NCBI GenBank assembly: GCA_022376465.1
Contig: JACDTU010000025.1
Location: 1 to 64,000 of the forward strand
Length of the DNA: 64,000 nucleotides
From: Cubamyces lactineus
Lineage: Eukaryota; Basidiomycota; Agaricomycetes; Polyporales; Polyporaceae
Reading direction: 5' to 3'
Positions 17,745 to 38,683 of this stretch are shown in pieces. A program made the translations under genes and the position numbers. The notes beneath the pieces are model-generated. The model made no database searches, was not told the origin of the DNA, and saw nothing but the letters and a program-made list of their open reading frames with translations. Position 1 is the stretch's first letter; every line of letters starts with the position of its first letter.

Positions 17745-20700
17745 AAAGTAGATTTCCACCCTCGAGACCATGGGACCATGCAATCAAATTCAAGAAGGAT
17801 TTCGTTTATAACACCAAAGGGTCATGGAGGAAGATTTGTCCGCTGACTTACACGGAATGCGCAGAACTCGACCAGTTTATTGCAGAGAGTCTCGAGAAGG
17901 GATACATTTGAAAATTCAAGCCTCCTCTAGCCTTGCCATTTTTTTTGTCACCAAGAAAGATGGGAGTCTTCAACCAGTTCAAGATTGTGGGGCTCTTAAT
18001 AAGGGGACAGCACAAAACGCATACCCTTTGCCACTCATTAGCAACATTATTGACCAGCTGAAAGGGGCCACAATATCCACCAAACTTAATGTGCAAGCAG
18101 GATACAATAATGTTTGCATCAAGGAAGGTGATGAATGCAAAGCTGTGTTTATCACACCAGGTGGATTGTTTAAACCAACGATCATGTGTTTTGGATTGTG
18201 CAATGTACCAGCCACATTCCAAAATATAATGAACTATATCCTTCAAGACGTGCTCTGGGAGGGATGGATGGTCATTTACATGGATGACAACCTAATATTT
18301 TTGAACAATGTTGAAGAACATCACGAGAGGACACAAAGAGCCTTACAATGGCTCCAAGACAGCGATTTATTCCTCAAGGCGGAAAAATGCGAGTTCAATA
18401 GGCAAGAAGTCAAATTCTTAGGATCAATTATCTGGCCAGGAGTTGTCGCTATGGATCCCATTAAACTCAAGGTGTTATGCTCCGTGCTGTAACCCCAAAG
18501 TCCAAGCCCCGAACCTCTGTACTCCGCTCCTTACTCCACATCACGTACTCCGTTCCTCCGTACTCCGCTCTTTCATACCCCGTACCCCCGACTCCGTTCT
18601 CTGTACTCCGCACTTTGTACTCCGTACTTCGGACTTCCCCTGATCCCATGACTTACATGTCTCAGATAACCCCTCATGGCACTGCCTACATGAGGCTTTT
18701 GCTTACTGAGCTATCTGCGTTATCTTACCCTTGGCAAGTTACTTTGTACCTTCATTCTTCTCCTTCCTATCACGTACATCTCTTATTGTTTCTATCAGGT
18801 TTCTGACTTAGTATAAATACTGCCCCGGAATGTAGTAGCTACTCAGTTCGGAAATCTCGTTAACCTCGCTATACTGGTTCATCTCGTAGGCCGACACTCA
18901 ACCCTGACCCCCTAGTCCGACCAACCTTTGTTCCCTTCCTATCTTCCCCTCCGACCCGACCCCGTTCCCAAGTCCGACCTCCGCCCGTCAAGTCCGTACT
19001 CTGTAATCCGCAAATAGAGGACACCGAGTCGGAACCTGTGCATTACTAATAGTTTCGCGAAAGTCCTCACAACAGTGCTAGTCCGACCTCCAGTCGTACT
19101 CCGACCCCGAACTCTGTCCAAGTCCCAACCACCAAAGTTGTACCCCCGGACGGCACGGTCCTAACACAAGGCAATTGTTGAGTGGGAGCCACCAAAGACA
19201 GTCAAGCAAGTCCAAGCATTCTTAGGGTTCGGGAATTTTTACCGACAATTCATTCAGGATTATTCCAAGATAGTTCAACCCCTCACAGAATTAACAAAGA
19301 AGGACAAGCCCTTTGTGTGGTCTCAAGATTGTCAAGAAGCATTTGAGACACTCAAGAAACAATTTACGAAGAACCGATCCTGCAAATCCCGGATCCGGAG
19401 AAACCGTTTCAAATAGAGTGTGATGCATAAGGTCGCAACAGGTGCTGTACTACAACAGCAAGGAGAAGATGGACAATGGCATTCATGTGCCTATTTGTCC
19501 AAATCTTTCACTCCTGCAGAATGGAACTATCAGATTTATGATAGAGAATTGTTAGCCATTGTTCAAGCTCTCAAAACATGGCGACATTTTCTACAGGGAT
19601 CCCCTCATTCTGTGGAAATTCTCTCAGATCACAGAAATCTGACGTACTTCCGTATGGCGCAGAAGTTGAATTGTAGACAGGCTCAATGGCATTTATTCTT
19701 CTCAGAATTCAACATTGCAATCAAGCATCAACCTGGAAAATCCCTCACCCAAGCAGACACCCTTTCTCGGAGATCAGGGCATGATGGGGGGGAAAATGAC
19801 AACAAGGACGTCATTGTCCTAGGATCAGAATTATTTGTCAAGGCTATCAATGTCGAGCTTCAAGAGCGCATTAGGGACAGCAAACTACAGGATACCTCGG
19901 TAGTGGAGTACATTACTCTAAAAGGAAAGGCTACCAAACACCCGGAGTTTGGCAAACCAGAAGACTGGTCCGACGATGATGGAATACTTCTGTACAAGAA
20001 CAGAGTATATGTTCCACCAGATAATCAGTTGTACCATGATATAGTCAAGTTGTATCATGATGCGCTGATTATGGGACACCCAGGAGTCCAGAAGACCTAC
20101 AACTTGGTTAAACGGGAATATATGTGGCCAGGCATGCAAAAATTCATCACGCAATATATCAAGGGTTGTGCGGCTTGTCAAACATGCAAGGTCAATACAC
20201 ATCCCCTCAAACCAGGTTTAATTCCCATGCAACACAGTGGGGATACTAGGCCTTTCCAAACGATCACCATGGATTATATCACCGATTTACCAGAGTTGGA
20301 TGGGTTCAATGCCATCCAAGTGGTAGTCGACCATGATGTATCCAAGGCAGCGGTATTCTCTCCCTGCACAAAGAATATTACAGCTGAAGGAGCCATGGAT
20401 ATTCTGCAAAGAGATGTATATCACAGGTTTGGATTACCCGCAAAGATTATTTCGGATCGAGGACCGCAATTCATCTCCAAGGCATTCAAAGAATTACACA
20501 ACAGCCTAGGAATCAAAACTGCGCTCAGTACAGCCTATCATCTGCAAATGGATGGGGGAACAGAACAAGTCAATCAAGAACTCGATTTAGCACTTCAACT
20601 CTACTGTGCTAACAATCCAGATACCTGGGCCAAACTGCTGCCTCAATTCAGATTTGCGTATAATCAGCGGACACACTCTGTCACAGGAAAATCCTCTTTT

Positions 20701-21336
20701 GAACTCCTCTATGGATTTCAGCCAGAGGCCATTGGGATGGTCAGAACAACCCCAAAGCATCCAAGTACGAAGCAGAGGCTTCAAAGTCTTCAGGAAGCCA
20801 GAGAGAATACAATCGCTGCACATGCTCAAGCGGCTGCAGCGATGTCAAAAAGGCTCCCTGCTGCTCAAGTACTGCTGAAGCAAGGAGACAAGGTTCTTCT
20901 CAACACAAAGAACCTCAGGCTCCCATATGCCTCCAGGAAGTTAATTCCAAAACGAGTGGGACCATTCACAATTGTCAAGGTCTTGGGACCGGTCACATTC
21001 AAATTAAAACTTCTGGAGACATGGAAGAGACACCCCGTCTTCCACGCAGTGCTACTCACTCCGTACCACACAACAAAGGAGCACGGTCCAGACTACATCC
21101 GACCTCCACCAGTTCCAACCCCAGAGTCGACTGAAGGGGAGAATTGGGAGGTAGAGGCGATCCTAAGTCACTGCACTAGAGGTACCCAAAAGCAGTATCT
21201 CGTGGCTTGGAAGGGTTGGCCCGTGTCAGAAAATTCTTGGGAACCAAAAAACATCTCAAGAATGCGCAGACGGTCCTGCGCAACTATAAGAAGAGGCACA
21301 AGTTGCAGTGAAAAAGTCAACGCAATATTTCTTTGA
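17745..21336 (+). pseudogene. Old Ty3/gypsy pol (RT, RNase H, integrase, chromodomain), broken
   Basis: RT starts at RPWDHAIKFKKDF (about 17765), shifts frame near 17908, then reads KKDGSLQPVQDCGALN and the catalytic VIYMDDNL (about 18270). A solo LTR (18473-19166) interrupts it. The frame resumes exactly after the target duplication with AIVEWEPPKTVKQVQAFLGF. RNase H follows after another shift near 19370. From 19420 one long frame gives the integrase HHCC finger (HPGVQK..CAACQTC), the DDE core (MDYITD, SDRGPQF, GTEQVNQE) and a chromodomain (NWEVEAILS..YLVAWKGWPVSENSWEP). Chromodomains direct chromoviruses to modified histones. The protease and gag parts are absent, so the copy is 5'-truncated as well as mutated. 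Confidence 0.85.
18473..19166 (+). mobile_element. Solo LTR of the young gypsy family, TSD CAAGG
   Basis: 694 bp from TGTTATGCTCCGTGC to GCACGGTCCTAACA, flanked by the 5-bp direct repeat CAAGG (18468-18472 and 19167-19171). It is homologous to the LTRs at 24486-25187 and 32233-32935, including the TATA box and the CAGTTCGGAAAT motif. It interrupts the RT of the older gypsy element. Recombination between two LTRs of a full insertion is the usual origin. Confidence 0.95.
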
Positions 21337-21365: not shown

Positions 21366-23380
21366 ATGGTCTACACTTGTACTCGTCTCACAGAACGTTG
21401 CTTCACTAAGAGCTCAAGACGTCATATCCCTCGCCCTCCCAACTTCATTCGTGAATGGCGAACAGTGTTCTACAATCATCTTCCCTGACACACGGTTTCT
21501 GTTACGCTCCGTGCTGTAACCCCGAAGTCCGATCCCCGAACCCCCGTACTCCGCTCCTTACCCCGCACTACGTACTCCGCTTCCCCGTACTCCGCTCTTC
21601 CGTACCCCGTACCCCTGGCTCCGTTCTCCGTACTCCGCACTTCGTACTCCGTACTTCGGACTTCCCCCCGACCCCATGACTTACATGTCTCAGATAACCC
21701 CTCATGGCGCTACCTACATGAGGCTTTTGCTTACTGAGCTATCTACGTTATCTTACCCTTGGCAAGTTACTTCGTACTTTCGTTCTCCTCTTTCCTATCA
21801 CGTACATCTCTTTTGTTTCTACCAGGTTTCTGACTTAGTATAAATACTGCCCCGGAATGTAGTAGCTACTCAGTTCGGAAATCTCGTTATACTCGTTAAC
21901 CTTGTACACTCGTCTTACTGGACTTCTAGTCCGTACTCCGACACTCAACCCCGACTCCCTAGTCCGACCAACCTTCGTTCCCTTGCTACCAACCCCTTCG
22001 ACCCAACCCCGTCCCCAAGTCTGACCTTCGTCCCGTCAAGTCCGTACTCCGTAGTCCGTAAATAGAGGACATCGAGTCGGAACCCGTGCGTTACTAATAG
22101 TTTCGCGAAAGTCCTCACCCCAGTGCTAGTCCGACCTCCGGTCGTACTCCGACCCCGAACTCCGTCCAAGTCCCGACCACCGGAGTTGTACCCCCGGACG
22201 GCACGGTCTTAACAGTTTCTATCCATGACAAAGGTACCCTTGCCGATCGTATTGGCTGGGTTATCGTCCATCCCAACCTCTACAGCCATGTTGAGGCTAG
22301 GGTCTCCCATCTCCCCGAGGTCAGGGACCTTATTGATGTCTACCGTGCTCTGGCTAGGGCCACTTCCTCATACACCATTCTCCTCAAGTACAACAAGAGA
22401 ACACTGGCACCCAAGTCGGAGAAGAAGAAGGTGGTTCAGGTTGTGAGTGAGGCCTACCAAGCAGTGATCCATGTGGCAGAGAAAGTCATATCTATGCTCG
22501 CTAACCCCCAGGTCGCGGGGGTTCTCTCGGATCTCATGCCACTTCGCAACCAGCATAGTACCCAGAACTGGGGACATGTTTTTTGGCCTACACGTCTCGA
22601 CTACTACCAGAAGCCTTTCAGAGCGGATTCCTCGGAGAGGATGAAGACAAGGACGAGGAGCACTCTGGAGGATGGTCTACTCCCTCGACAGACCCTTGGA
22701 AGGTCTCCACCCCTGACCCTGAGGAGGAGGCTATCAAGTGGGGTCTGACTTCGGTCAAGGAGTCCACTCCCTCCCTCGTCTCTTCTCGTTCCGACTCGCC
22801 TTGCTCTGAGGTCGAGTCTTTCGACTTACTCCCAGAGCTCAATCATCTTGAGCTCAGCACCGTCGATGAACTTTCGGAAGAGGAGTTCCACGATGCCCTC
22901 AAGGTCGCTGTTAGGGCTCCCTCTCCTCCTCCCCCTCCTCCGACAACTCTTCTCAAGAATGTCGAGGACCCTTGTGGATGATGCGGTTTCTTTTGAGGAA
23001 CCGGAGGAGATCAACTTGGTTACATCAACTACAATGGCGACATCTTCATAGTCCCTAACGGATACTTCGGCACTTCAGTCACCCAAATCATGGCTTTCTA
23101 CCATTTGCGGTGGCCGGAGGCTTCAGTTAGGACTACCAAGGCAGCTTCCCTTCTCATTGACGACATCATTGCTCGAAGGGGGAATTTTCCTGCTTTCAAG
23201 GTCAAAGCAGAACACATTCCGACGACTTACCGCCAAGCTATAGGTATGTCGACAACGGAGTGTATGCTGTGGGACCGTATTCAGGTAGTGGGTAACAAAG
23301 CTGATCTCATTAACATCTCTTTGGACGTTTATCACCCAGAGGTTGTTGAGAGAAACCCTAACGCTATATTGGATCTCTAA
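21366..23380 (+). pseudogene. Extra ORF downstream of the old gypsy pol, unknown function, broken
   Basis: A reading frame opens with ATG at 21366, 30 bases after the pol stop. It is closed by TGA at about 21487, is cut by a solo LTR (21500-22214), and continues in the same frame after the duplication (HTVSIHDKGTLADRIGWV, PNLYSHVEARVSHLPEVRDL). A frame change at a T6 run near 22572 leads to an acidic stretch (GEDEDKDEEHSGG). More shifts follow, then a block with NGDIFIVPNGYFGTSV, and the frame ends NAILDL at 23378. A purine run (GGAGGGGGAGC, about 23400) right after it resembles a polypurine tract, so this may be a third ORF of the old gypsy element. I do not recognise the protein. Confidence 0.45.
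21500..22214 (+). mobile_element. Solo LTR of the young gypsy family, TSD GTTTC
   Basis: 715 bp from TGTTACGCTCCGTGC to GCACGGTCTTAACA, flanked by GTTTC (21495-21499 and 22215-22219). It carries the same TATA box and CAGTTCGGAAAT motif as the other copies. Its insertion split the extra ORF of the older gypsy element without removing bases. Confidence 0.95.
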
Positions 23381-24214: not shown

Positions 24215-24485
24215 AACTAGCGCTGACTACGACGTACCAGAAAGTCCTTGAATACGCTAGAACATTCCTCTCTTTGGTCTCTGTACATGTATATAAGAGG
24301 CGACACCACAGAGCGACCCTCAGCTTTCAGTCTCTTCGCCAATGTTGAGCAGGGCTTGTTACGCAGTGAAAAGCCCCACTAGCTCACTTACCTGTAGAGC
24401 TCTGAATAGAGGCACACGTAGGGATTGAAGGTTAAGAGCGACTTGTTGTACTGCTCCTACAGAGCAGCCTTATATACATGTACAC

Positions 24486-25187
24486 TGCTACGCTCCGTGC
24501 TGTAACCCCGAAGTCCGAACCCCGAACCCCTGTACTCCGCTCCTTACTCCGTTACGTACTCCGTTCCTCCGTACTCCGCTCTTTCGTACCCCGTACCCCC
24601 GACTCCGTTCTCTGTACTCCACACTTTGTACTCCGTACTTCGGACTTCCCCTGACCCCATGACTTACATGTCTCAGATAACCCCTCATGGCGCTACCTAC
24701 ATGAGGCTTTTGCTTACAGAGCTATCTGTGTTATCTTACCCTTGGCAAGTTACTTTGTACTTTCGTTCTCCTCTTTCCTATCATGTACATCTCTTATTGT
24801 TTCTATCGGGTTTCTGACTTAGTATAAATACTGCCCTTCAATGTAGTAGCTACTCAGTTCGGAAATCTCGTTATCCCTCATTAACCTCGTTATACTGGTT
24901 CAACTCGTAGTCCGACACTCAACCCCGACCCCCTAGTCCGACCATCCTTCGTTCCCTTCCTACCACCCCCTTCGACCTAACCCCGTTCCCAAGTCTGACC
25001 TCCGTCCCGTCAAGTCCGTACTCCGTAGTCCGCAAATAGAGGACACCGAGTCGGAACCCGTGCGTTACTAATAGTTTCGCGAAAGTCCTCACCCCAGTGC
25101 TAGTCCGACCTCTGGTCGTACTCCGACCCCGAACTCCGTCCAAGTCCCGACCACCGGAGTTGTACTCTGGACGGCACGGTCCTAACA
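24486..25187 (+). repeat. 5' LTR of the young gypsy element
   Basis: 702 bp, TGCTACGCTCCG to CGGTCCTAACA; the first bases are TGCTA instead of the TGTTA seen in the other copies. Contains a clustered GTACTCCG-type repeat (about 24530-24650), a TATA box at 24823 and the self-priming motif at 24855. Confidence 0.93.
24823..24830 (+). promoter_or_regulatory. TATA box of the gypsy LTR
   Basis: TATAAATA, conserved in all four LTR copies in the window. It sits 32 bases upstream of CAGTTCGGAAAT (24855-24866), which would place the transcript start at or near that motif. Confidence 0.7.
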
Positions 25188-25189
25188 GT

Positions 25190-25201
25190 ATTTCCGAACT
25201 G
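25190..25201 (+). other. Primer-binding site, complementary to the transcript's own 5' end
   Basis: ATTTCCGAACTG begins two bases after the 5' LTR and is the exact reverse complement of CAGTTCGGAAAT at 24855-24866 in the LTR. In Tf1-type elements the first bases of the RNA fold back onto the primer site and prime minus-strand synthesis instead of a tRNA. The position of both partners fits that model. Confidence 0.75.
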
Positions 25202-25218
25202 ACCGGGTTTCACTCAAC

Positions 25219-26688
25219 ATGTCCACTCGAACCGTAGTCCGCACTCAGACTCAATCTCGTGCCTTAGAGCAAGAAGACCCTGCCGAGAACTGGAGTGGCT
25301 GGACAGCTCGCCGAGGCGACTCAGCGATGCAAGAAGAAGCTACTCCGAGCCACCGTGGGCAGTTCGCTCGAACAATCGTTGAAGTGTCCTCCGATGGGGA
25401 TGACGAAGGTGACCCGCCTCAGCCTTTGGTCATCTCTACTGCGACTGCCTCACAGGTACCCCGAGAGCCATCTCCGGGGAATCCGTTCTCCGAGGGTCAG
25501 CCTTCAGGTCCGAGCCGCGGGCCTCCAGGTCCGCCTAGTCCTCCAGGTCTGCCGGGCCCTCCAGGACCGCCAGGTCCTCCGGAGAACGACCCACAAGGAC
25601 CGGGAGACGACGACACTAGCTCAAGCTCGGACTCCTCCAACTCCGAAGACTGAGTTCAGTCGCAACTAGCGACCGCGATCTCTCTCATCGCGCGTACCCT
25701 CAAACGTACTACCACTCCAACTCTGGCCGTTACCCAACCTTCGAACAGCGAGCGGCACAATGTCCGCGAGCCGGACCAGTTCGACGGGTCCGACCCCAAC
25801 AAACTCCGGTCTTTCTTTACGCAGTTGGAACTTGTCTTCAAGGCCCGACCCCGAACATTCGACTCCGATGAGAAGAAGGTGACCTACGCCATCTCTTTCC
25901 TCAAGGGCACCGCGCTACAATGGTTCGAGCCCTACCTCCTCAAAGGTGACTCGGACAACCCCCCCATCTTCCTCACATCCTACGACCACTTCCAGGAGGA
26001 ACTCTGTGTGAACTTCGGCCCCTACGATGCCTCAGGAGCTGCGGAGCATGAGCTAATGAACCTCTGGATGGGCGACAACCAGCGGATAGCTAAGTACATC
26101 ACCCAGTTCACCCGCCTCGCTACTTAAGTCCGCTGGGGTAATGCTCCGCTCCGATACCAGTTGTACGACGGACTTCCGAACCGTCTCAAGGACCGCATCT
26201 CCGAGGTCAGCAAACCCGAGACCCTGGTGGCCCTCCGCGACCTCGCGCAGTCGATTGACAACCGCTACTGGGAGCGCAAGGCCAAGGTCTCGCGCGAGTC
26301 CGGACCTTCCAAGTCCGGCAGCAAGTCGGCCTCCGACTCCAAGTCCTCCAACTCCGGCAACAAGTCCGGAGGTAGCAACTCCGGACAGGCCTCCTCATCT
26401 AACCCGTCCAAATCTGGCAATTCCAGTACTTCGTCGAAGTCTCCTAAGACTCCGAAGACCCCGGCCAAGACGTACGCCGACAAGCTTGGTAAGGATGGAA
26501 AGCTCACCCCCGAGGAGTGTCAGCGCCGTTTCGCCAATAATCTCTGTCTCTTCTGCGGCGGAGCTGGTCACACTGCGAGTGCTTGTCCGAAGAAGACCTC
26601 GTCCGCAACTAAGGGTCGTGCTGCTCAAGCCAACCCCGCTCCTGCTGCGCCTGCTCCGGCCGCAGCTCCGAAGGAGACAAAAAATTAG
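25219..26688 (+). pseudogene. Gag polyprotein of the young gypsy element (two in-frame stops)
   Basis: One frame of 490 codons starting at ATG 25219, 31 bases after the LTR. The N-terminal third is acidic with a Gly-Pro-Pro-rich stretch (about 25500-25580) and a Ser/Asp cluster. The middle holds the conserved gag helices (FDGSDPNKLRSFFTQLELVF, then LKGTALQWFEPYL). The C-terminal part is Ser/Lys-rich and ends in a zinc knuckle, CLFCGGAGHTASAC (C-x2-C-x4-H-x4-C, about 26551), which packages RNA. TGA at 25651-25653 and TAA at 26125-26127 interrupt it; both could arise from CGA and CAA by C-to-T change. The frame ends with TAG at 26686 directly after a slippery heptamer. Confidence 0.85.
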
Positions 26689-26747
26689 TCCGCGGTCCTC
26701 CAAACTCCGTACCCCATGAGGACTGCGTTGACTCCTCTGTTACGGAG
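26679..26747 (+). promoter_or_regulatory. Candidate -1 programmed ribosomal frameshift signal at the gag-pol junction
   Basis: The last gag codons are ACA AAA AAT TAG, giving the slippery heptamer A_AAA_AAT (26679-26685) in the correct phase. A -1 slip continues as TTA GTC CGC, which is precisely the pol frame. Nine bases downstream, GTCCTC (26695-26700) pairs with GAGGAC (26718-26723), and the loop bases CTCCGTA (26705-26711) pair with TACGGAG (26741-26747), the geometry of an H-type pseudoknot. Because the element abounds in CTCCG/CGGAG words, the second stem may be coincidental. Confidence 0.65.
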
Positions 26748-29700
26748 ATTCTCGGGCTCAATGTGTCCGCTCCTTCCGACCCCCATGCACTCCTCCTCGA
26801 CTTGTACTCCGATCCTATCCCAACTCCGTTCCGCACCCTTATCGACTCCGGTTCCTCCCATTGTTTCATCAACTCCGATTTCGCGACTACGTATCAACTC
26901 CCAACCACCGCCGTAACCCCGCTCCGTCTACAGCTTTTTGACAGTACTTCTAACCACCTGATTACTTCGTTTACCACCCTGCCCATACATTTTCCGTCTG
27001 GAGAAGTTCTCAATATAGATTTCTATGTTACTCTGCTCGACAAGTCCGTGTCTGCCGTTCTGGGATACAGCTGGCTCTCCGCCTACAATCCGTTGATTGA
27101 CTGGAAGAAGCGCAGCATCCAATTCCGTTCCGCACCCCCACCACGTTCTGTTTCTGACACCATGGTACCCCTGCCAGCTCCGGCTAAGCGTACTCCGTCT
27201 ACTCCGGCTACTCCGGAACTACCGACTTCCCCTACTCCGACCTCTGTACCCCGGATCTCTCTGGTGAACGCTGCTGCTTTCGCTTGAGCTTGCAAACTCC
27301 CGGGGTACGCGAGTTATACCCTGAATCTGTCTACTCCGGACTTGGCTACTGCACGGAGTTCATCCATCTCCGACTCTCCCCTGGACCTCACCAGAGTTCC
27401 GGAGGAGTACCACGAGTTTGCAGATGTCTTCAGCAAGACCAAGGCCGACATCCTACCGGAGCACCGCCCATACGACCTAAAGATCGATCTGGAAGAAGGG
27501 GCTACTCCGCCACTCGGACCTATCTATTCCCTCTCAAAACTCGAGCTCAACATACTTCGGGAGTACATCAACGAGAACCTCTGATTGGGGTTCATACGTC
27601 CGTCCAATTCTCCCTGCAGAGCTCCCGTCCTCTTCGTCAAGAAGAAGGACGGATCTCTTCGCCTTTGCGTGGACTACCGGGGCTTGAATAAGATCACCCA
27701 GAAGGACAGCTACCCCCTTCCTCTCGTCTCGGACTTGCTGGACGCGCCTCGGAAGGCCCGAATCTATACCAAAATCGACCTCCACCATGCCTACAACCTA
27801 GTCCGCATAGCTCCTGGAGATGAGTGGAAGACCGCGTTTCGAACCCGCTACGGGTCTTTCAAATGGTTAGTCATGCCGTTCGGACTTTCTAACGCGCCCG
27901 CTGCCTTCCAACGGTTTGTCAATGACATCTTCGCGGACATGCTCGATGTGTGCATCATTGTCTACCTCGACGACATCCTCATCTACTCCGACAACCCCGA
28001 GCAACACCGCAAGCACATCAAAGAGGTACTCCGGCGACTCCGCAAGCACCGGCTTTATGCCCGTGCTGACAAATGCAAGTTCCACACCGACTCTGTCGAG
28101 TACCTCGGGTACATTCTCTCTCCCACCGGACTTACCATGGCGGAGTCGAAGGTTAAGGCGATCTCGGACTGGCCCGAACCCTGGAAGGTCTGCGACATAC
28201 AGTCGTTCCTGGGGTTCGCAAACTTCTATCGACGGTTTATTCCAAACTACTCCGAGATCGTACTACCGCTGACCCGCTTGACCCGCAAGTCCGTGCCCTG
28301 GCACTTCTCCAAGGAATGTTGGAGTTCGTTTAACGCTCTCAAGAAGGCGTTCACGACAGCTCCGGTACTACACCACTGGATGCCCGACCGACCCCTCACT
28401 GTCGAAACCGACGCCTCAGACTATGTCATTGCCGGCATTCTCTCCCTTACCACTGAGTCCGGTGAACTCCACCCCATCGCTTTCCACTCCCGCACCTTGA
28501 CCGGCGCGGAGTTGAACTACGACACTCACGACAAGGAACTCCTCGCGATCTTTGAATGCTTCAAGACCTGGCGGCACTACCTCGAAGGTTCGGCAACTCC
28601 GATCGATGTTGTCACGGACCACAAGAACTTGGTATACTTTGCGACTACGAAGTTACTAACTCGCCGCCAAGCCCGATGGTCGGAGTTCCTCTCGCAGTTC
28701 AACCTCGTAGTCCGGTTTTGGCCAGGTAAGCTTGGAGCGAAGCCCGACGCACTGACACGCCGTTGGGACGTCTACCCAAAAGAGGGGGGCAGTGACTACT
28801 CCGTCGTCAACCCGCACAACTACCGACCGGTCTTCACCCAGGAGCAGCTCGCCACATCCCTCCGGGCTTCCTACCTCTGACCCCCCGTACTCCGGGCTTC
28901 CTACCTCTGACCCCCCGTACTCCGAGCTTCCTTCGTCCTCGACGCTGAACAACTCCTCTCGGACATCAAGTCCGCCCAAGCAACCCCGACTCCTGACCCC
29001 GAACTATCTGCCGCACTCAAGCTCACCTCCGGAGGCAACTCCCGATGGTCCCGCGATGAAGACGGGCTACTCCGACTCTCAGGTCGAGTCTATGTCCCGA
29101 ACTCCGGCGACCTCCGCCTCCATGTACTCCGAGCTTGTCACGATCATCCTACTGCCGGACACTGGGGACAGAACAAGACGCAAGCCCTGGTCCTGCGGGA
29201 CTACGCCTGGCCCAGACTCCGACTCTTTGTCCGGGACTACTATAAGTCCTGTACTACCTGTGCGCGAGCTAAAGTCCCCCGGCATCTCCCCTACGGTACT
29301 TTGAAGCAACTCCCGATCCCCGAGCGACCCTGGAACTCCATCTCCATGGACCTCATCGAGCAACTCCCGAACTCCGCCGGCTACACCACGATCCTGGTGG
29401 TAGTCGACAGGCTCACTAAGCAAGGTATATTCATCCCTACCCACGACACGCTTACAGCCTCGGAGCTAGCGGACTTGTTCGTACTCCATGTGTTCTCCAA
29501 GCACGGAGTTCCCTCGCACGTTACCTCCGACCGGGGCTTGGAGTTCATCTCACACTTCTTCCGCTCCCTCGGCAAGGCCCTCGACATGCGCCTTCACTTC
29601 ACCTCCGGTTACCACCCGGAAGGCGACGGTCAAACTGAGCGGGTTAACCAGACCCTTGAGCAGTACCTCCGGATCTACTCGAACTACCAGCAGGACAACT

Positions 29701-30441
29701 GGTCCCAACTCCTTCCCTTGGCGGAGTTCACGTACAACAATGCCCCGTCCGCAACTACCAGTATATCACCGTTCTTCGCGAACAAGGGCTACAACCCCAC
29801 CATCTCCGTCTACCCCGAGCGGGACCTCACCTCCACTCAAGCTCGCGACTACGCTGTCGACCTCGACGAACTTCACACCCAACTCCGACAGCAGATCTCC
29901 GAAGCCCAGGCCCGATACCAAGTGCAGGCGGACAAGCACCGTCTACCGGCGCCGGACTTCAAGGTCGGAGATCAGGTCTATGTCCGAGCTCAGCACATCC
30001 GGACTACACGTCCCTCCAAAAAGTTGTCCGAGAAGTTCTTAGGTCCGTTCACTATCATCGCACAGGTCGGAACTCACTCCTTCACCCTCCGACTACCGGA
30101 CTCTATGCACGCGGTACACCCTGTTTTCCATGTCTCGCAACTCGAGCCTGCAACTCCGAACACTATCCCTGGCCGCATCCAAACTCTGCCACCTCCGATC
30201 CTGGTGGACAGTGGTGGACGGAGAACCGGAGTACGAGATTTCGGAGATCCTCGACTCCAAGATTGACCGCCGGCGTCGGAGTTGTCAACTCCTGTACCTA
30301 GTCCGATGGGCAGGCTACGAGGGTACGGACAAAGAAACTTCGTGGATCTTAGCCACGGAGCTCGGACATGCCCAGGAGTTAGTCTCGGACTTCCACTCCG
30401 CTTACCCCGACAAACCCGGACCTCTAGCTAAGTTGTCTTGA
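26685..30441 (+). pseudogene. Pol polyprotein of the young gypsy element (stops and a 10-bp insertion)
   Basis: Reads in the -1 frame relative to gag. Protease with LIDSGSSHCF (about 26847). RT from about 27400 with KKDGSLRLCVDYRGLN and catalytic IVYLDDILIY (about 27958). RNase H with VETDASDYVIAG (about 28397). Integrase HHCC finger (HDHPTAGH..CTTCARAK, about 29130-29270). Core residues in SMDLIEQLP, TSDRGLEF and GQTERVNQ. The GPFTII..HPVFHVSQLEP module (about 30040-30150) precedes a chromodomain (YLVRWAGYEGTDKETSW, about 30294). Breaks: TGA at 27285 and 27582; a 30-bp tandem duplication at about 28858-28925 that carries TGA twice; and a 10-bp insertion AGTGGTGGAC near 30205 that throws the chromodomain out of frame (read as a separate frame to 30441). 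Confidence 0.9.
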
Positions 30442-30546
30442 GAGTTCACACCGGTATTTCTCACCTCCACCGTTTTCATTCAACCCCGCGCTCAGACTAC
30501 AAGATACTAGCTAAGATGTCCGAAGTCCGAAGTCCGTACTCCCGCA

Positions 30547-32020
30547 CTACTCCGCAGTGTCCATGTCCGCAGGTCCCTCCAGACCTTTCCCCTCCTTCGC
30601 ACCCTCGCCCTGCTCCTCCTCCACCTCACCGGACTTGCCCCGCGCGGACTTGTCCAACCCCGACCCATTTTCCTCCTCCTCCCAGTCCGACCCAGCTACC
30701 CCTGCCCGCTCCAGTGTGTCCGTGATCGCGTCCTCCTTGTCCTGCGAGGTGATCTCGAGGATCTCCCGCAGCATAGTCCCGAACTCTGTCGCAAGTTCGG
30801 ACTTCACTGCCTCGCGGACGGCCTCACCGATCACGGCCTTCAACTCCTTCCGCACGATCTTGGCGATGGCATCGCCAAGACCCCGGACCTCCTCCCGCAT
30901 CATCTCCTCCCGCTGCTCCTCCTCGTCGACCAGCAGGTTGATGACCCGCCCCGCAGTGCGCCGGTTGTGCTGCACTGCGACAAGCAGGCGCTCGAGGAGC
31001 TCCCGGTCGGAGAGTTTCTCCAGGTCGTCGGACCACCGGAGGTCGGACTTCCCAACCTCCGGAAGTCCGGAGCTTGCGGACATCCGGGGGCCTGTTGACG
31101 AGCCCGCAATGCTCGGGCCTCGGGCTACGACCATGCATGCTGGTGGGTTAACTCCGGGCGGTGCGACAAAAGTCCACTGGACCTCACCTGGTTGGAGCGG
31201 CTTCTCCGCCGCCTTCTCCGCCGCCTTCTCCTTCTCCTTCTCCTTCTCCTTCTCCTTCCCCTTGCCCTTCTCCGCCCACACCTTCTCCGAACTCCGTACT
31301 CCAGAGGGCACGGGGGCCTCAAACCCGTCGTCGTCGTCAACAATGGGGGCGGACTTGACCTTCTTGTGCTGCGGGCTTGGGGCCTCCTCTTTGCACGCGA
31401 TTCGGGCCTGGATGTCCACGGGCAACCTGCGAGCCCCGACGCACGCGCGCGACCGGGCCTTCTGGCACTGGACGCAGCTTGACGTCCGCTTGCCAGCGCG
31501 GAACCGGCATGCGATCTGCTTGGCCACGCACTGATCGCACTTCGTCCTGTAAACTCAGTGTTAGTCCGAACCCCGTACTCCGTACCCCGACCGGACTTAC
31601 CACGGGACGAGCAACTCCGCGTCATCCTCCTCCTCCTCCGACTCCGGCTCCTCGTCCTCCGCGGGACACTTGCTTCCCCATGCGGAAGTCCCGGCCTTCG
31701 CGAGGGCAGCCTGGTGGATCAGCGCCGCTGCCTTTTGCGCGGCCTCGTACTCTGCGCGCTCCTTCTCCTCCCACGCTCGCTCCTCCTCCCGCGCTCGCTC
31801 CTCCTCCCGTGCTCGCTCCTCCTCCCGCGCTCACTCCTCCTCCCGCGCTCGCTCCTCCTCCGCCCTTTGCGCCCTACAAACCACCGTTAGTCCATACCCC
31901 GAACTCCGACAACTGCGGTACTTACGCCTCGGCTGCTGCGGCCTCCTCCGCCGCCGCCTTCATCCGGAGTTGCGCCAAGTGCGCCTCCAAGGCTTGGATG
32001 TTGTCGAGGGTACTGGACAT
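30547..32020 (-). CDS. Antisense gene inside the gypsy element: Cys-cluster, coiled-coil protein
   Basis: Three exons on the opposite strand to gag-pol. Exon 1 (32020-31926) starts MSSTLDNIQALEAHL and ends at a GTAAG donor. Exon 2 (from about 31873) has an 18-bp minisatellite coding EEERAR repeats, then AALIHQAALAKAG and an acidic stretch, ending at another GTAAG donor (about 31599). Exon 3 joins in frame to give KCDQCVAKQIACRF and CVQCQKARSRAC, a double Cys cluster reminiscent of fungal zinc-binding modules. It continues with a KEKEKE tract, a long helical region (ELLERLLVAVQHNRRTAGRV, GLGDAIAKIVRKELKAVIGE) and an acidic tail ending at TAG 30547. Exon 3 is fully open. Exon 2 holds one TGA (31833-31831) where sister repeats read CGA, and its phase with exon 1 is off by one. 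Function unknown; nucleic-acid binding or silencing control is only a guess. Confidence 0.7.
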
Positions 32021-32087
32021 TGCTGGTGGTGGTGGTGGTAGTGGTGGGAGACAGAGAGTGAGGAAGAACTGGCTAAGTCACCCCCGT

Positions 32088-32095
32088 CTTATATA
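32088..32095 (-). promoter_or_regulatory. TATA box for the antisense gene
   Basis: TATATAAG on the minus strand, about 70 bases upstream of the ATG at 32020 and inside the element rather than in the LTR. It suggests an independent promoter firing toward pol. Confidence 0.5.
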
Positions 32096-32219
32096 CACCT
32101 TTCCTCATCGATTCTGACCCTGCCCCGATTCTTCATCTCCGTTCCCTGGACTTATCAGATTACCTTTTTTGGACAGACTTCTATTTCCTTTCACCATAGG
32201 CCCTCAAGGGTTCAGGCCT

Positions 32220-32229
32220 AGGGGGGAGG
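32220..32229 (+). other. Polypurine tract of the young gypsy element
   Basis: AGGGGGGAGG three bases before the 3' LTR (32233), the expected plus-strand primer position. Confidence 0.75.
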
Positions 32230-32232
32230 CAC

Positions 32233-32935
32233 TGTTACGCTCCGTGCTGTAACCCCAAAGTCCGATCCCCGAACCCCTGTACTCCGCTCCTTACTCCGTT
32301 ACGTACTCCGTTCCTCCGTACTCCGCTCTTTCGTACCCCGTACCCCCGACTCCGTTCTCTGTACTCCACACTTTGTACTCCGTACTTCGGACTTCCCCTG
32401 ACCCCATGACTTACATGTCTCAGATAACCCCTCATGACGCTACCTACATGAGGCTTTTGCTTACAGAGCTATCTGTGTTATCTTACCCTTGGCAAGTTAC
32501 TTCGTACTTTCGTTCTCCTCTTTCCTATCATGTACATCTCTTATTGTTTCTATCGGGTTTCTGACTTAGTATAAATACTGCCCTTCAATGTAGTAGCTAC
32601 TCAGTTCGGAAATCTCGTTATCCCTCATTAACCTCGTTATACTGGTTCAACTCGTAGTCCGACACTCAACCCCGACCCCCTAGTCCGACCATCCTTCGTT
32701 CCCTTCCTACCACCCCCTTCGACCTAACCCCGTTCCCAAGTCTGACCTCCGTCCCGTCAAGTCCGTACTCCGTAGTCCGCAAATAGAGGACACCGAGTCG
32801 GAACCAGTGCGTTACTAATAGTTTCGCGAAAGTCCTCACCCCAGTGCTAGTCCGACCTCCGGTCGTACTCCGACCCCAAACTCCATCCAAGTCCCGACCA
32901 CCAGAGTTGTAACCCCGGACAGCACGGTCCTAACA
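32233..32935 (+). repeat. 3' LTR of the young gypsy element
   Basis: 703 bp, TGTTACGCTCCG to CGGTCCTAACA. It differs from the 5' LTR at roughly a dozen places by eye, mostly C/T and G/A changes, plus a small length difference near the end. Confidence 0.93.
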
Positions 32936-33154
32936 TACACAGAGGCTATGATGTAATACTGTATAGTACGATGTCATACTACGTAGTACCTCAGCCACAG
33001 TATCCGGAACTTTCTCTAGGAGACTGGTAGCCTCGTGTCCATTCCCGCTTACTAGCCTGCTATTAGTCAGTGCCTAATGCGCATCTAGTTCAACACTCCC
33101 CCTCGCTAAGCACCACAGTAGTGTGCGCGAGCGCGCAGGCTGAATGTAGCGGAT

Positions 33155-38385: not shown

Positions 38386-38683
38386 TGTTGAGCAGGGCTT
38401 GTTACGCAGTGGAAAGCCCCACTAGCTCACTTACCTGTAGAGCTCTGAATAGAGGCACACGTAGGGATTGAAGGTTAAGAGCAACTTGTTGTACTGCTCC
38501 TACAGAGCAGCCTTATATACATGTACACGGAGGCTATGATGTAATACTGTATAGTACGATGTCATACTACGTAGTACCTCAGCCACAGTATCCGGAACTT
38601 TCTCCAGGAGACTGGTAGCCTCGTGTCCATTCCCGCTTACTAGCCTGCTATTAGTCAGCGCCTAATGCGCATCTAGTTCAACA
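38386..38683 (-). repeat. Copia LTR (5' LTR in element orientation)
   Basis: 298 bp, intact. The other LTR has the same length when its two parts (24343-24485 and 32941-33095) are added. The five differences between them are all transitions. Confidence 0.93.

What the first reader, a model, noticed from the sequence alone, without database searches (positions are those of the whole stretch)
30547..32020. Spliced antisense gene carried inside a gypsy retrotransposon
Between pol and the 3' LTR the element carries a minus-strand gene with two GTAAG-donor introns, its own TATA box and a 327-codon open last exon. The product has two Cys clusters (CDQC..C and CVQC..C) and long helices. Introns on the antisense strand would survive retrotransposition because the genomic RNA is read from the other strand, so the element can carry a spliced gene. 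The product might regulate the element (HBZ-like logic), bind its DNA, or be a captured host gene. Last exon and splice signals are seen; role is inferred.
Basis: partly seen in the sequence, partly recalled or inferred. Interest (0 to 1): 0.82.

Follow-up and report, generated by a model that had tools for sequence, protein, structure and literature searches.

The report
Conserved antisense gene inside fungal retrotransposon
A jumping element in a fungus (probably a polypore) carries a second gene, with introns, on its opposite strand; selection keeps that gene intact, its product resembles a DNA-binding zinc-cluster protein, and the whole element is littered with a short DNA word of the kind such proteins recognise, so the element may recognise and control itself.

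Summary
Between the chromodomain of pol and the 3' LTR of a Ty3/gypsy element (24486-32935, TSD TACAC) lies a minus-strand gene: TATA box, ATG at 32020, two introns of 52 and 54 nt, last exon ending at 30547. The window's own copy has an in-frame stop in exon 2, but 23 of 35 comparable copies in the genome are open for 426-440 aa. TATA, donors, branch points and acceptors are kept, exon indels are nearly all multiples of three, and dN/dS is 0.12. Relatives are unnamed Trametes/Cubamyces proteins. The product has six cysteines spaced like a Gal4-type Zn2Cys6 cluster; predicted structures match only Zn2Cys6 chains (7 of 7 and 13 of 13 Foldseek hits), each match weak alone. The new point: the element is peppered with A[C/G]TCCG (CGGAST), 14 per kb against 0.8 outside, even in pol codons beyond synonymous shuffles (60 against 21 in six ORFs), and densest in the gene's introns. 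I propose self-recognition: the antisense protein binds CGGAST sites on its own element and controls its chromatin or transcription, as VANC does for VANDAL. Binding and its direction are inferred. Antisense genes in LTR elements are known (Grande, Retand, Boty brtn); this is a new variant.

The parts
24481..24485 (.). target-site duplication TACAC (left)
   Evidence: sequence
24486..25187 (+). 5' LTR (98% identical to the 3' LTR)
25219..26690 (+). gag region (Retrotrans_gag, Ty3_capsid; zinc knuckle below cut-off), broken by in-frame stops
26691..27284 (+). protease (RVP_2)
27585..28877 (+). reverse transcriptase and RNase H
28911..30212 (+). integrase (H2C2 and SH3_Tf2-1 above cut-off, rve core just below)
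30213..30441 (+). chromodomain (PF00385), end of pol, in another frame than integrase in this copy
30547..31546 (-). antisense gene exon 3 with stop codon
31441..31539 (-). six-cysteine, Zn2Cys6-like segment
30706..31008 (-). long predicted helix (residues 182-282 of the exon-3 model), pLDDT above 90 over most of it
31547..31600 (-). intron 2 (GTAAGT...CTAAC...CAG), rich in CGGRSTW-type units
31601..31873 (-). exon 2 with 18-nt repeats; in-frame stop in this copy
31874..31925 (-). intron 1 (GTAAGT...CTAAC...TAG)
31926..32020 (-). exon 1 with ATG at 32020
32088..32095 (-). TATA box TATATAAG of the antisense gene
32021..32232 (-). antisense promoter and leader region; no CGGAST motif; its LTR-side part (32100-32231) is the least divergent stretch compared (1.4%)
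32233..32935 (+). 3' LTR; 8 motifs upstream of TATAAATA at 32570 and 7 downstream
32936..32940 (.). target-site duplication TACAC (right)
   Evidence: sequence
24486..32935 (.). element-wide dispersed motif A[C/G]TCCG / CGGA[C/G]T, 118 instances

Best explanation
The element carries a true accessory gene on its antisense strand, with its own TATA promoter and two introns that survive retrotransposition because the genomic RNA reads the other strand. It encodes a protein of about 430 aa: N-terminal charged, coiled-coil-like part, Zn2Cys6-like segment, basic linker and a long helix that may dimerise. I propose that the protein enters the nucleus, recognises CGGA[C/G]T sites spread through LTRs, gag, pol and its own introns, and marks copies of its own family; the likeliest effect is in the element's favour (activation of the LTR promoter, or anti-silencing as with VANC). 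Shown: gene structure, purifying selection, cysteine pattern, motif enrichment. Inferred: transcription, splicing, zinc binding, nuclear entry, binding to this motif, direction of the effect. Confidence: real constrained gene 0.97; zinc-cluster fold 0.85; binds CGGAST 0.5; favours the element rather than limits it 0.65 given binding.
For: Gene: splice signals and TATA kept; 23 of 35 frames open; NG86 dN/dS 0.118 over 45 pairs of 10 of the 23 open copies, four other frames 1.6 to 4.3, the wobble-aligned opposite frame 0.178; integrase 0.092. Indel runs in pairwise comparison of 8 copies that are multiples of three: exon 2 31 of 31, exon 3 68 of 72, intron 1 7 of 42, 3' flank 0 of 43 (pairs, not independent events). 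Relatives P0002, P0003 and P0004 read through the places of both junctions. Zinc cluster: all six Cys in 9 of 15 family rows, the other 6 lacking part or all of the segment, and in 23 of 23 open copies; Pfam Zn_clus listed for 7 of 10 segments, best E 0.0016; 4 of 5 PDB profile hits are GAL4 or PPR1; Foldseek hits 7 of 7 and 13 of 13 Zn2Cys6 chains. Motif: 118 in 8.45 kb; family pieces 15.4/kb, outside 0.78/kb; six ORFs 60 against 20.9 (sd 3.6, max 34) in 400 synonymous shuffles, ACTCCG first of all hexamers; three control ORF sets in the window show no excess. Most Zn2Cys6 proteins bind CGG-containing sites (PMC3334620, passages); a Pho7 footprint reads TCGGACATTCAA (PMC5559640, passages).
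Against: No RNA, binding or methylation data. The Zn2Cys6 matches are each below significance: Pfam at best 19.0 bits against cut-off 21, 3 of the 7 listed segments match only half of the profile out of register, 3 of 10 including the window's own have none; the best PDB profile hit is a ribosomal protein, eL42; Foldseek E 0.28 to 8.7 with rmsd 9.6 to 12.4 for the exon-3 model; models pLDDT 64 to 67. The link between motif and protein is indirect: only the shared CGG. The gag ORF pieces alone are not clearly above shuffles (2 against 0.95, 6 against 3.6). Tests for conservation of motif sites within the family are inconclusive: losses 81 against 102.5 expected, shared motif-changing variants 32.3 against 36.0, no effect in pol. 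Motifs lean to the plus strand in LTR and gag-protease, which an RNA-level role would also give.
Confidence: 0.45

Rival explanations
1. The antisense gene is a real accessory gene for a zinc-cluster-like protein, but it acts as an ordinary transcription factor on host promoters or at a few LTR sites; the element-wide motif has another cause.
For: Known Zn2Cys6 proteins are transcription factors; 8 motifs lie in the LTR upstream of its TATA.
Against: The motif is spread along the element and above synonymous expectation in protease, RT-RNase H, integrase and the antisense exon; a promoter factor does not need this.
Confidence: 0.25
2. The protein, or the antisense transcript through double-stranded RNA, limits the element (HBZ-like or copy-number control).
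For: The review PMC7264820 (parts 1 and 2 of 3 read) proposes regulation by protein or by double-stranded RNA for antisense genes.
Against: A transcript role alone does not need a protein frame with dN/dS 0.118 and frame-keeping indels; a self-limiting protein is not excluded by my data.
Confidence: 0.2
3. The motif is an RNA signal (packaging by Gag, RNA stability) or a by-product of tandem expansion of CGGRSTW units, unrelated to the antisense protein.
For: Strand bias 88 plus to 30 minus overall, 15 to 2 in the 5' LTR; frequent head-to-tail spacings 7, 12 and 15; introns look like arrays of such units.
Against: Minus-strand instances exceed the shuffle mean in RT-RNase H (7 against 1.9, shuffle maximum 7) and integrase (6 against 1.5, maximum 7); single sites in conserved domains are not tandem expansions; most one-letter variants are near expectation.
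Confidence: 0.25
4. The gene was captured from the host as a working transcription-factor gene with its introns.
For: Introns and TATA have the form of host genes (that form is recalled).
Against: 13 of 13 further loci read lie next to element pol or LTR; no free-standing gene was seen, though not every one of the 74 matches was read.
Confidence: 0.1
5. Chance open frame, no gene.
For: The window copy has a stop; 12 of 35 copies are not open.
Against: as above; relatives in other species.
Confidence: 0.02

Closest known systems
Antisense additional ORFs between pol and 3' LTR (aORF-3R) of plant Ty3/gypsy elements: Grande gene23, RIRE2, Retand ORF4 (PMC7264820, parts 1 and 2 of 3 read; PMC11963269, passages including parts of the abstract)
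   Same: Place, orientation, presence in most copies, own promoter (reported for Grande), suspected nuclear or DNA-binding role; about half of the Retand elements carry tandem repeats in that region
   Different: Here a chromodomain element of a fungus; two conserved introns (the word intron occurs 0 times in the Retand paper's text); a Zn2Cys6-like segment instead of TRP28 or SMC; a motif dispersed through the whole element
brtn of Boty-like elements in Botrytis (Zhao et al. 2011, Virology; nothing of it seen, known from citations in PMC8365987 and PMC7264820)
   Same: Antisense gene in a fungal gypsy element
   Different: Other host group; brtn sequence not at hand, so homology, introns and zinc cluster could not be compared
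Tcn1-like chromoviruses of fungi (PMC2864245, two passages)
   Same: Fungal chromodomain Gypsy elements; a figure legend lists an additional ORF of unknown function
   Different: The passages give no orientation, intron or domain; not compared by sequence
VANC/VANDAL anti-silencing, Arabidopsis (PMC5735166, passages)
   Same: TE-encoded protein with a short motif enriched in its own family and rare in other TEs, present in introns and tandem repeats
   Different: VANDALs are DNA transposons (recalled); VANC binding and hypomethylation are shown by experiment; the VANC21 motif lies mainly in non-coding DNA, here also in coding DNA; proteins not compared
HBZ of HTLV-1
   Same: Antisense spliced gene near the 3' LTR (recalled)
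   Different: Its antisense promoter lies in the 3' LTR and it is a bZIP (recalled); here the TATA lies outside the LTR and the segment is zinc-cluster-like
Gal4-type Zn2Cys6 transcription factors (GAL4, PPR1, HAP1, LEU3, PUT3, Pho7)
   Same: Cysteine spacing, short helices in the model, a long helix further on, CGG-containing candidate site
   Different: Carried by a retrotransposon; sequence match below Pfam's cut-off

Membership tests
Ty3/gypsy chromovirus | protease, RT, RNase H, integrase in this order and C-terminal chromodomain, LTRs, TSD | tested here: met
   (rve core 30.7 bits against cut-off 32.6, H2C2 and SH3_Tf2-1 above)
aORF-3R antisense accessory gene | between pol and 3' LTR, antisense | tested here: met
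aORF-3R antisense accessory gene | present in most copies and conserved as a protein | tested here: met
   23 of 35 open, dN/dS 0.118; copies were found by searching for the gene itself, so copies without it would not be counted
aORF-3R antisense accessory gene | transcribed from its own promoter | not testable with these tools
   only the conserved TATA box was seen
brtn (Boty) | sequence homology to brtn | not tested
   brtn sequence not held; only citations seen
Zn2Cys6 (Zn_clus, PF00172) | six cysteines spaced CX2CX6CX5-12CX2CX6-8C (pattern recalled) | tested here: met
   window and 23 of 23 open copies; 9 of 15 family rows, the other 6 lack part or all of the segment
Zn2Cys6 (Zn_clus, PF00172) | Pfam score above the curated cut-off of 21 bits | tested here: not met
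   best relative 19.0 bits, window segment none; so called Zn2Cys6-like, not filed as a member
Zn2Cys6 (Zn_clus, PF00172) | fold of the binuclear cluster | tested here: inconclusive
Zn2Cys6 (Zn_clus, PF00172) | zinc and DNA binding | not testable with these tools
   needs protein
VANC/VANDAL (works like) | short motif enriched in own family, rare elsewhere | tested here: met
   15.4/kb in family pieces against 0.78/kb outside
VANC/VANDAL | motif mainly in non-coding DNA | tested here: not met
   60 instances lie in six ORFs; not a VANC member
VANC/VANDAL | protein binds the motif and derepresses the family | not testable with these tools
   needs experiment
HBZ | bZIP product of an antisense promoter inside the 3' LTR | tested here: not met
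   TATA lies between gene and LTR; no bZIP among Pfam matches at E up to 1

The most novel reading that the evidence does not exclude
A retrotransposon has evolved a self-recognition system: an antisense, intron-containing zinc-cluster gene whose product reads a seven-letter word, CGGASTW, that the element has written across its body, including into the codons of pol and of the antisense gene itself and into the splice-signal regions of that gene's introns; a retroelement counterpart, arisen independently, of the VANC anti-silencing system of plant DNA transposons.
Probability: 0.4. Interest if true: 0.88.

Novelty: new variant of a known kind. Interest (0 to 1): 0.74.

Why it matters
What antisense genes of LTR retrotransposons do is an open question (PMC7264820 says their functions are not known). 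Here one such gene comes with a recognisable candidate DNA-binding segment and with a candidate target site that marks the whole family, so the question becomes one binding assay. If right, a retroelement tags itself for recognition at the cost of codon choice, a fungal parallel to TE anti-silencing.

Tried and rejected
Host capture was looked for by reading 13 further loci and found no support. Viral-contig scan with the family alignment: 275 pattern matches, 0 confirmed. Full family profile against the PDB: 0 hits at E up to 10. Pfam with the whole protein: only a P-II match at E 0.38. Motif-conservation tests are told in the report; they do not show selection on single sites at the present divergence. 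Whether other gypsy families of this genome (37-50% integrase identity) have an antisense gene or such a motif could not be read, apart from one ORF of a neighbour in the window (19417-21333), with 2 motifs against 1.3 expected. Literature searches, seen as listings: antisense/additional ORF/fungal, extra ORFs (13), brtn (19), VANC (44), zinc cluster with retrotransposon (48; 20 of 52 listed), Zn2Cys6 CGG (56), chromovirus antisense (57), Trametes antisense transcript (71; 0 papers), retrotransposon-encoded zinc cluster (78; 0 papers with 4 of 5 terms), Boty intron (81). No title or abstract start listed there names a zinc-cluster antisense gene of a retrotransposon or a dispersed self motif outside VANDAL; this covers that open library only, and PMC2864245 mentions an additional ORF of unknown function in fungal chromoviruses. 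One search aligned wrong frames through my wrong coordinates and was discarded. An earlier count said that Zn_clus was listed for 8 of 10 segments; one search gives 7 of 10.

Full report
The element. The window holds a Ty3/gypsy chromovirus at 24486-32935 with LTRs 98% identical, a 5-bp target duplication TACAC on both sides, protease, RT, RNase H, integrase domains and chromodomain. Repeats on either side show that it sits inside an LTR of a copia element. Its gag-pol in this copy is broken by in-frame stops and a frame change before the chromodomain; other copies have open frames of up to 1,305 codons at the integrase match. The host is a 36.3-Mb assembly; that it is a polypore is inferred from the relatives.

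The antisense gene. On the minus strand there are a TATA box, an ATG at 32020, two introns (31925-31874, 31600-31547) and a last exon to 30547. A DNA search of the genome gave 43 matches, the exon-3 protein 74; both are lower bounds by the tool's own words. From 39 fetched loci plus the window, 36 rows could be aligned between the end of pol and the 3' LTR; L043 and L045 were left out for length, L046 and L047 for lacking a border, and L044 lacks the 5' part. TATATAAG is in 35 of 35, donor 1 in 35 of 35, donor 2 in 35 of 36, acceptor 1 in 34 of 35, acceptor 2 in 36 of 36, although the 35 copies hold 15 different versions of intron 1 and 14 of intron 2. 23 of 35 spliced frames are open for at least 420 aa (426-440); the window's is not, having a stop at codon 46.

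Selection. Among 10 of the 23 open copies (45 pairs) dN/dS is 0.118 in the antisense frame; in 7 copies it is 0.127, beside 0.092 for integrase (one of the 7 has only 68 integrase codons, two have a stop there). The opposite-strand frame whose third positions coincide with those of the gene gives 0.178, an expected shadow; the other four give 1.6 to 4.3. Indel runs between pairs of 8 copies keep the frame in exon 2 (31 of 31) and exon 3 (68 of 72), not in intron 1 (7 of 42) or the 3' flank (0 of 43). Synonymous divergence of the gene (0.173) exceeds that of integrase (0.062) in the same 7 copies, and single pairs show LTR, pol and gene with different histories (LTR 0.4% and pol 2.6% in L012-L015, LTR 5.3% and pol 0.1% in L012-L016), so elements seem to recombine. 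Intron divergence (0.063-0.065) is below the synonymous divergence of the exons.

Relatives. Protein searches found 6, then 14 relatives including the first 6 (about 8,000 candidates scored in each, a cap). All that carry a name are hypothetical proteins of Trametes or Cubamyces. P0002, P0003 and P0004 run from the N-terminal charged part into the cysteine segment, across the places of both predicted junctions.

The motif. Looking for what such a protein could bind, I counted words in the element. A[C/G]TCCG and its reverse complement occur 118 times in 8,449 bases, against 42 in 46.7 kb of the remaining window, which still includes one LTR of the family at 18473-19164. Over fetched loci the family part has 15.4 per kb (2,935 in 190 kb, related copies and mainly 3' parts) and the rest 0.78 per kb (58 in 74 kb). 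In six ORFs of the element there are 60 against 20.9 (sd 3.6, maximum 34) in 400 shuffles of synonymous codons; ACTCCG ranks first of all hexamers and AGTCCG fourth, with overlapping words between, while most one-letter variants stay near expectation. By ORF: protease 11 against 2.7, RT-RNase H 10 and 7 against 2.3 and 1.9 on the two strands, integrase 9 and 6 against 3.2 and 1.5, antisense exon 5 and 4 against 1.9 and 1.6; the two gag pieces are not clearly above. The copia ORFs, the neighbouring gypsy ORF and 12 further ORFs (some overlapping) show no excess (4 against 5.2, 2 against 1.3, 21 against 21.1). The word was picked from this same sequence, so its rank is descriptive; control regions and shuffles are the test. 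Introns are densest: intron 2 holds 2 to 4 instances and intron 1 holds 1 to 3 in 35 of 35 copies. The intron-2 donor reads GTAAGTCCG in 33 of 35 copies and its branch region CGGACTAAC in 27 of 35, both overlapping the motif. The 211 bases before the gene hold none.

Is the motif under selection within the family? Motif columns differ less than other columns in LTR (0.059 against 0.068; CCG control words 0.068) and gene (0.057 against 0.086; control 0.075), not in pol (0.042 against 0.037; control 0.047). Losses are 81 against 102.5 expected and gains 13 against 8.7. Motif-changing variants are 32.3 against 36.0 expected in shared and 55.8 against 62.0 in singleton columns. This is suggestive at most; copies that no longer move decay freely, which would blunt such tests.

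Reading. The antisense gene is real and belongs to the class of antisense accessory genes reviewed in PMC7264820 (parts 1 and 2 of 3 read), of which fungal brtn of Boty is a cited example. New here, as far as my searches go, are the conserved introns, the zinc-cluster-like product and the element-wide CGGAST word. The closest working model is VANC of VANDAL elements, whose motif is enriched in its own family, rare in other TEs, and found in introns and tandem repeats (PMC5735166, passages). Rivals are an ordinary transcription factor, a self-limiting regulator, and an RNA-level or purely mechanical origin of the motif.

Noticed in passing
24486-32935: Element-wide dispersed hexamer A[C/G]TCCG, 14 per kb, above synonymous expectation inside pol and antisense ORFs; now part of the finding.
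   Followed up: yes
18473-19164 and 21499-22212: Two further LTRs of the same family, about 91% identical; the first splits the RT of another gypsy element (RT pieces 17938-18516 and 19153-19773).
   Followed up: partly
31547-31600: Donor and branch region of intron 2 overlap the CGGAST motif; both introns look built from CGGRSTW units.
   Followed up: partly
24343-24485 and 32936-33095: The element is inserted in an LTR of a copia element whose matching repeat is at 38386-38683.
   Followed up: no
L012, L015, L016 (LTR, pol and gene compared): Copies are mosaics: LTR, pol and antisense gene differ in which copy is nearest, so template switching between subfamilies is likely.
   Followed up: partly
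L053:2690-9175: Mirrored pair of 3' ends of the element, facing each other with their 3' LTRs about 0.4 kb apart.
   Followed up: no
L034:3851-4499 and L035:1-575: Beyond the 3' LTR lies a further piece of the gene's 5' part, promoter and LTR, as if a second 3' end were joined in tandem.
   Followed up: no
G000, other gypsy families: Families with 37-50% integrase identity exist, several with open frames over 1,000 codons; whether they have antisense genes could not be read.
   Followed up: no
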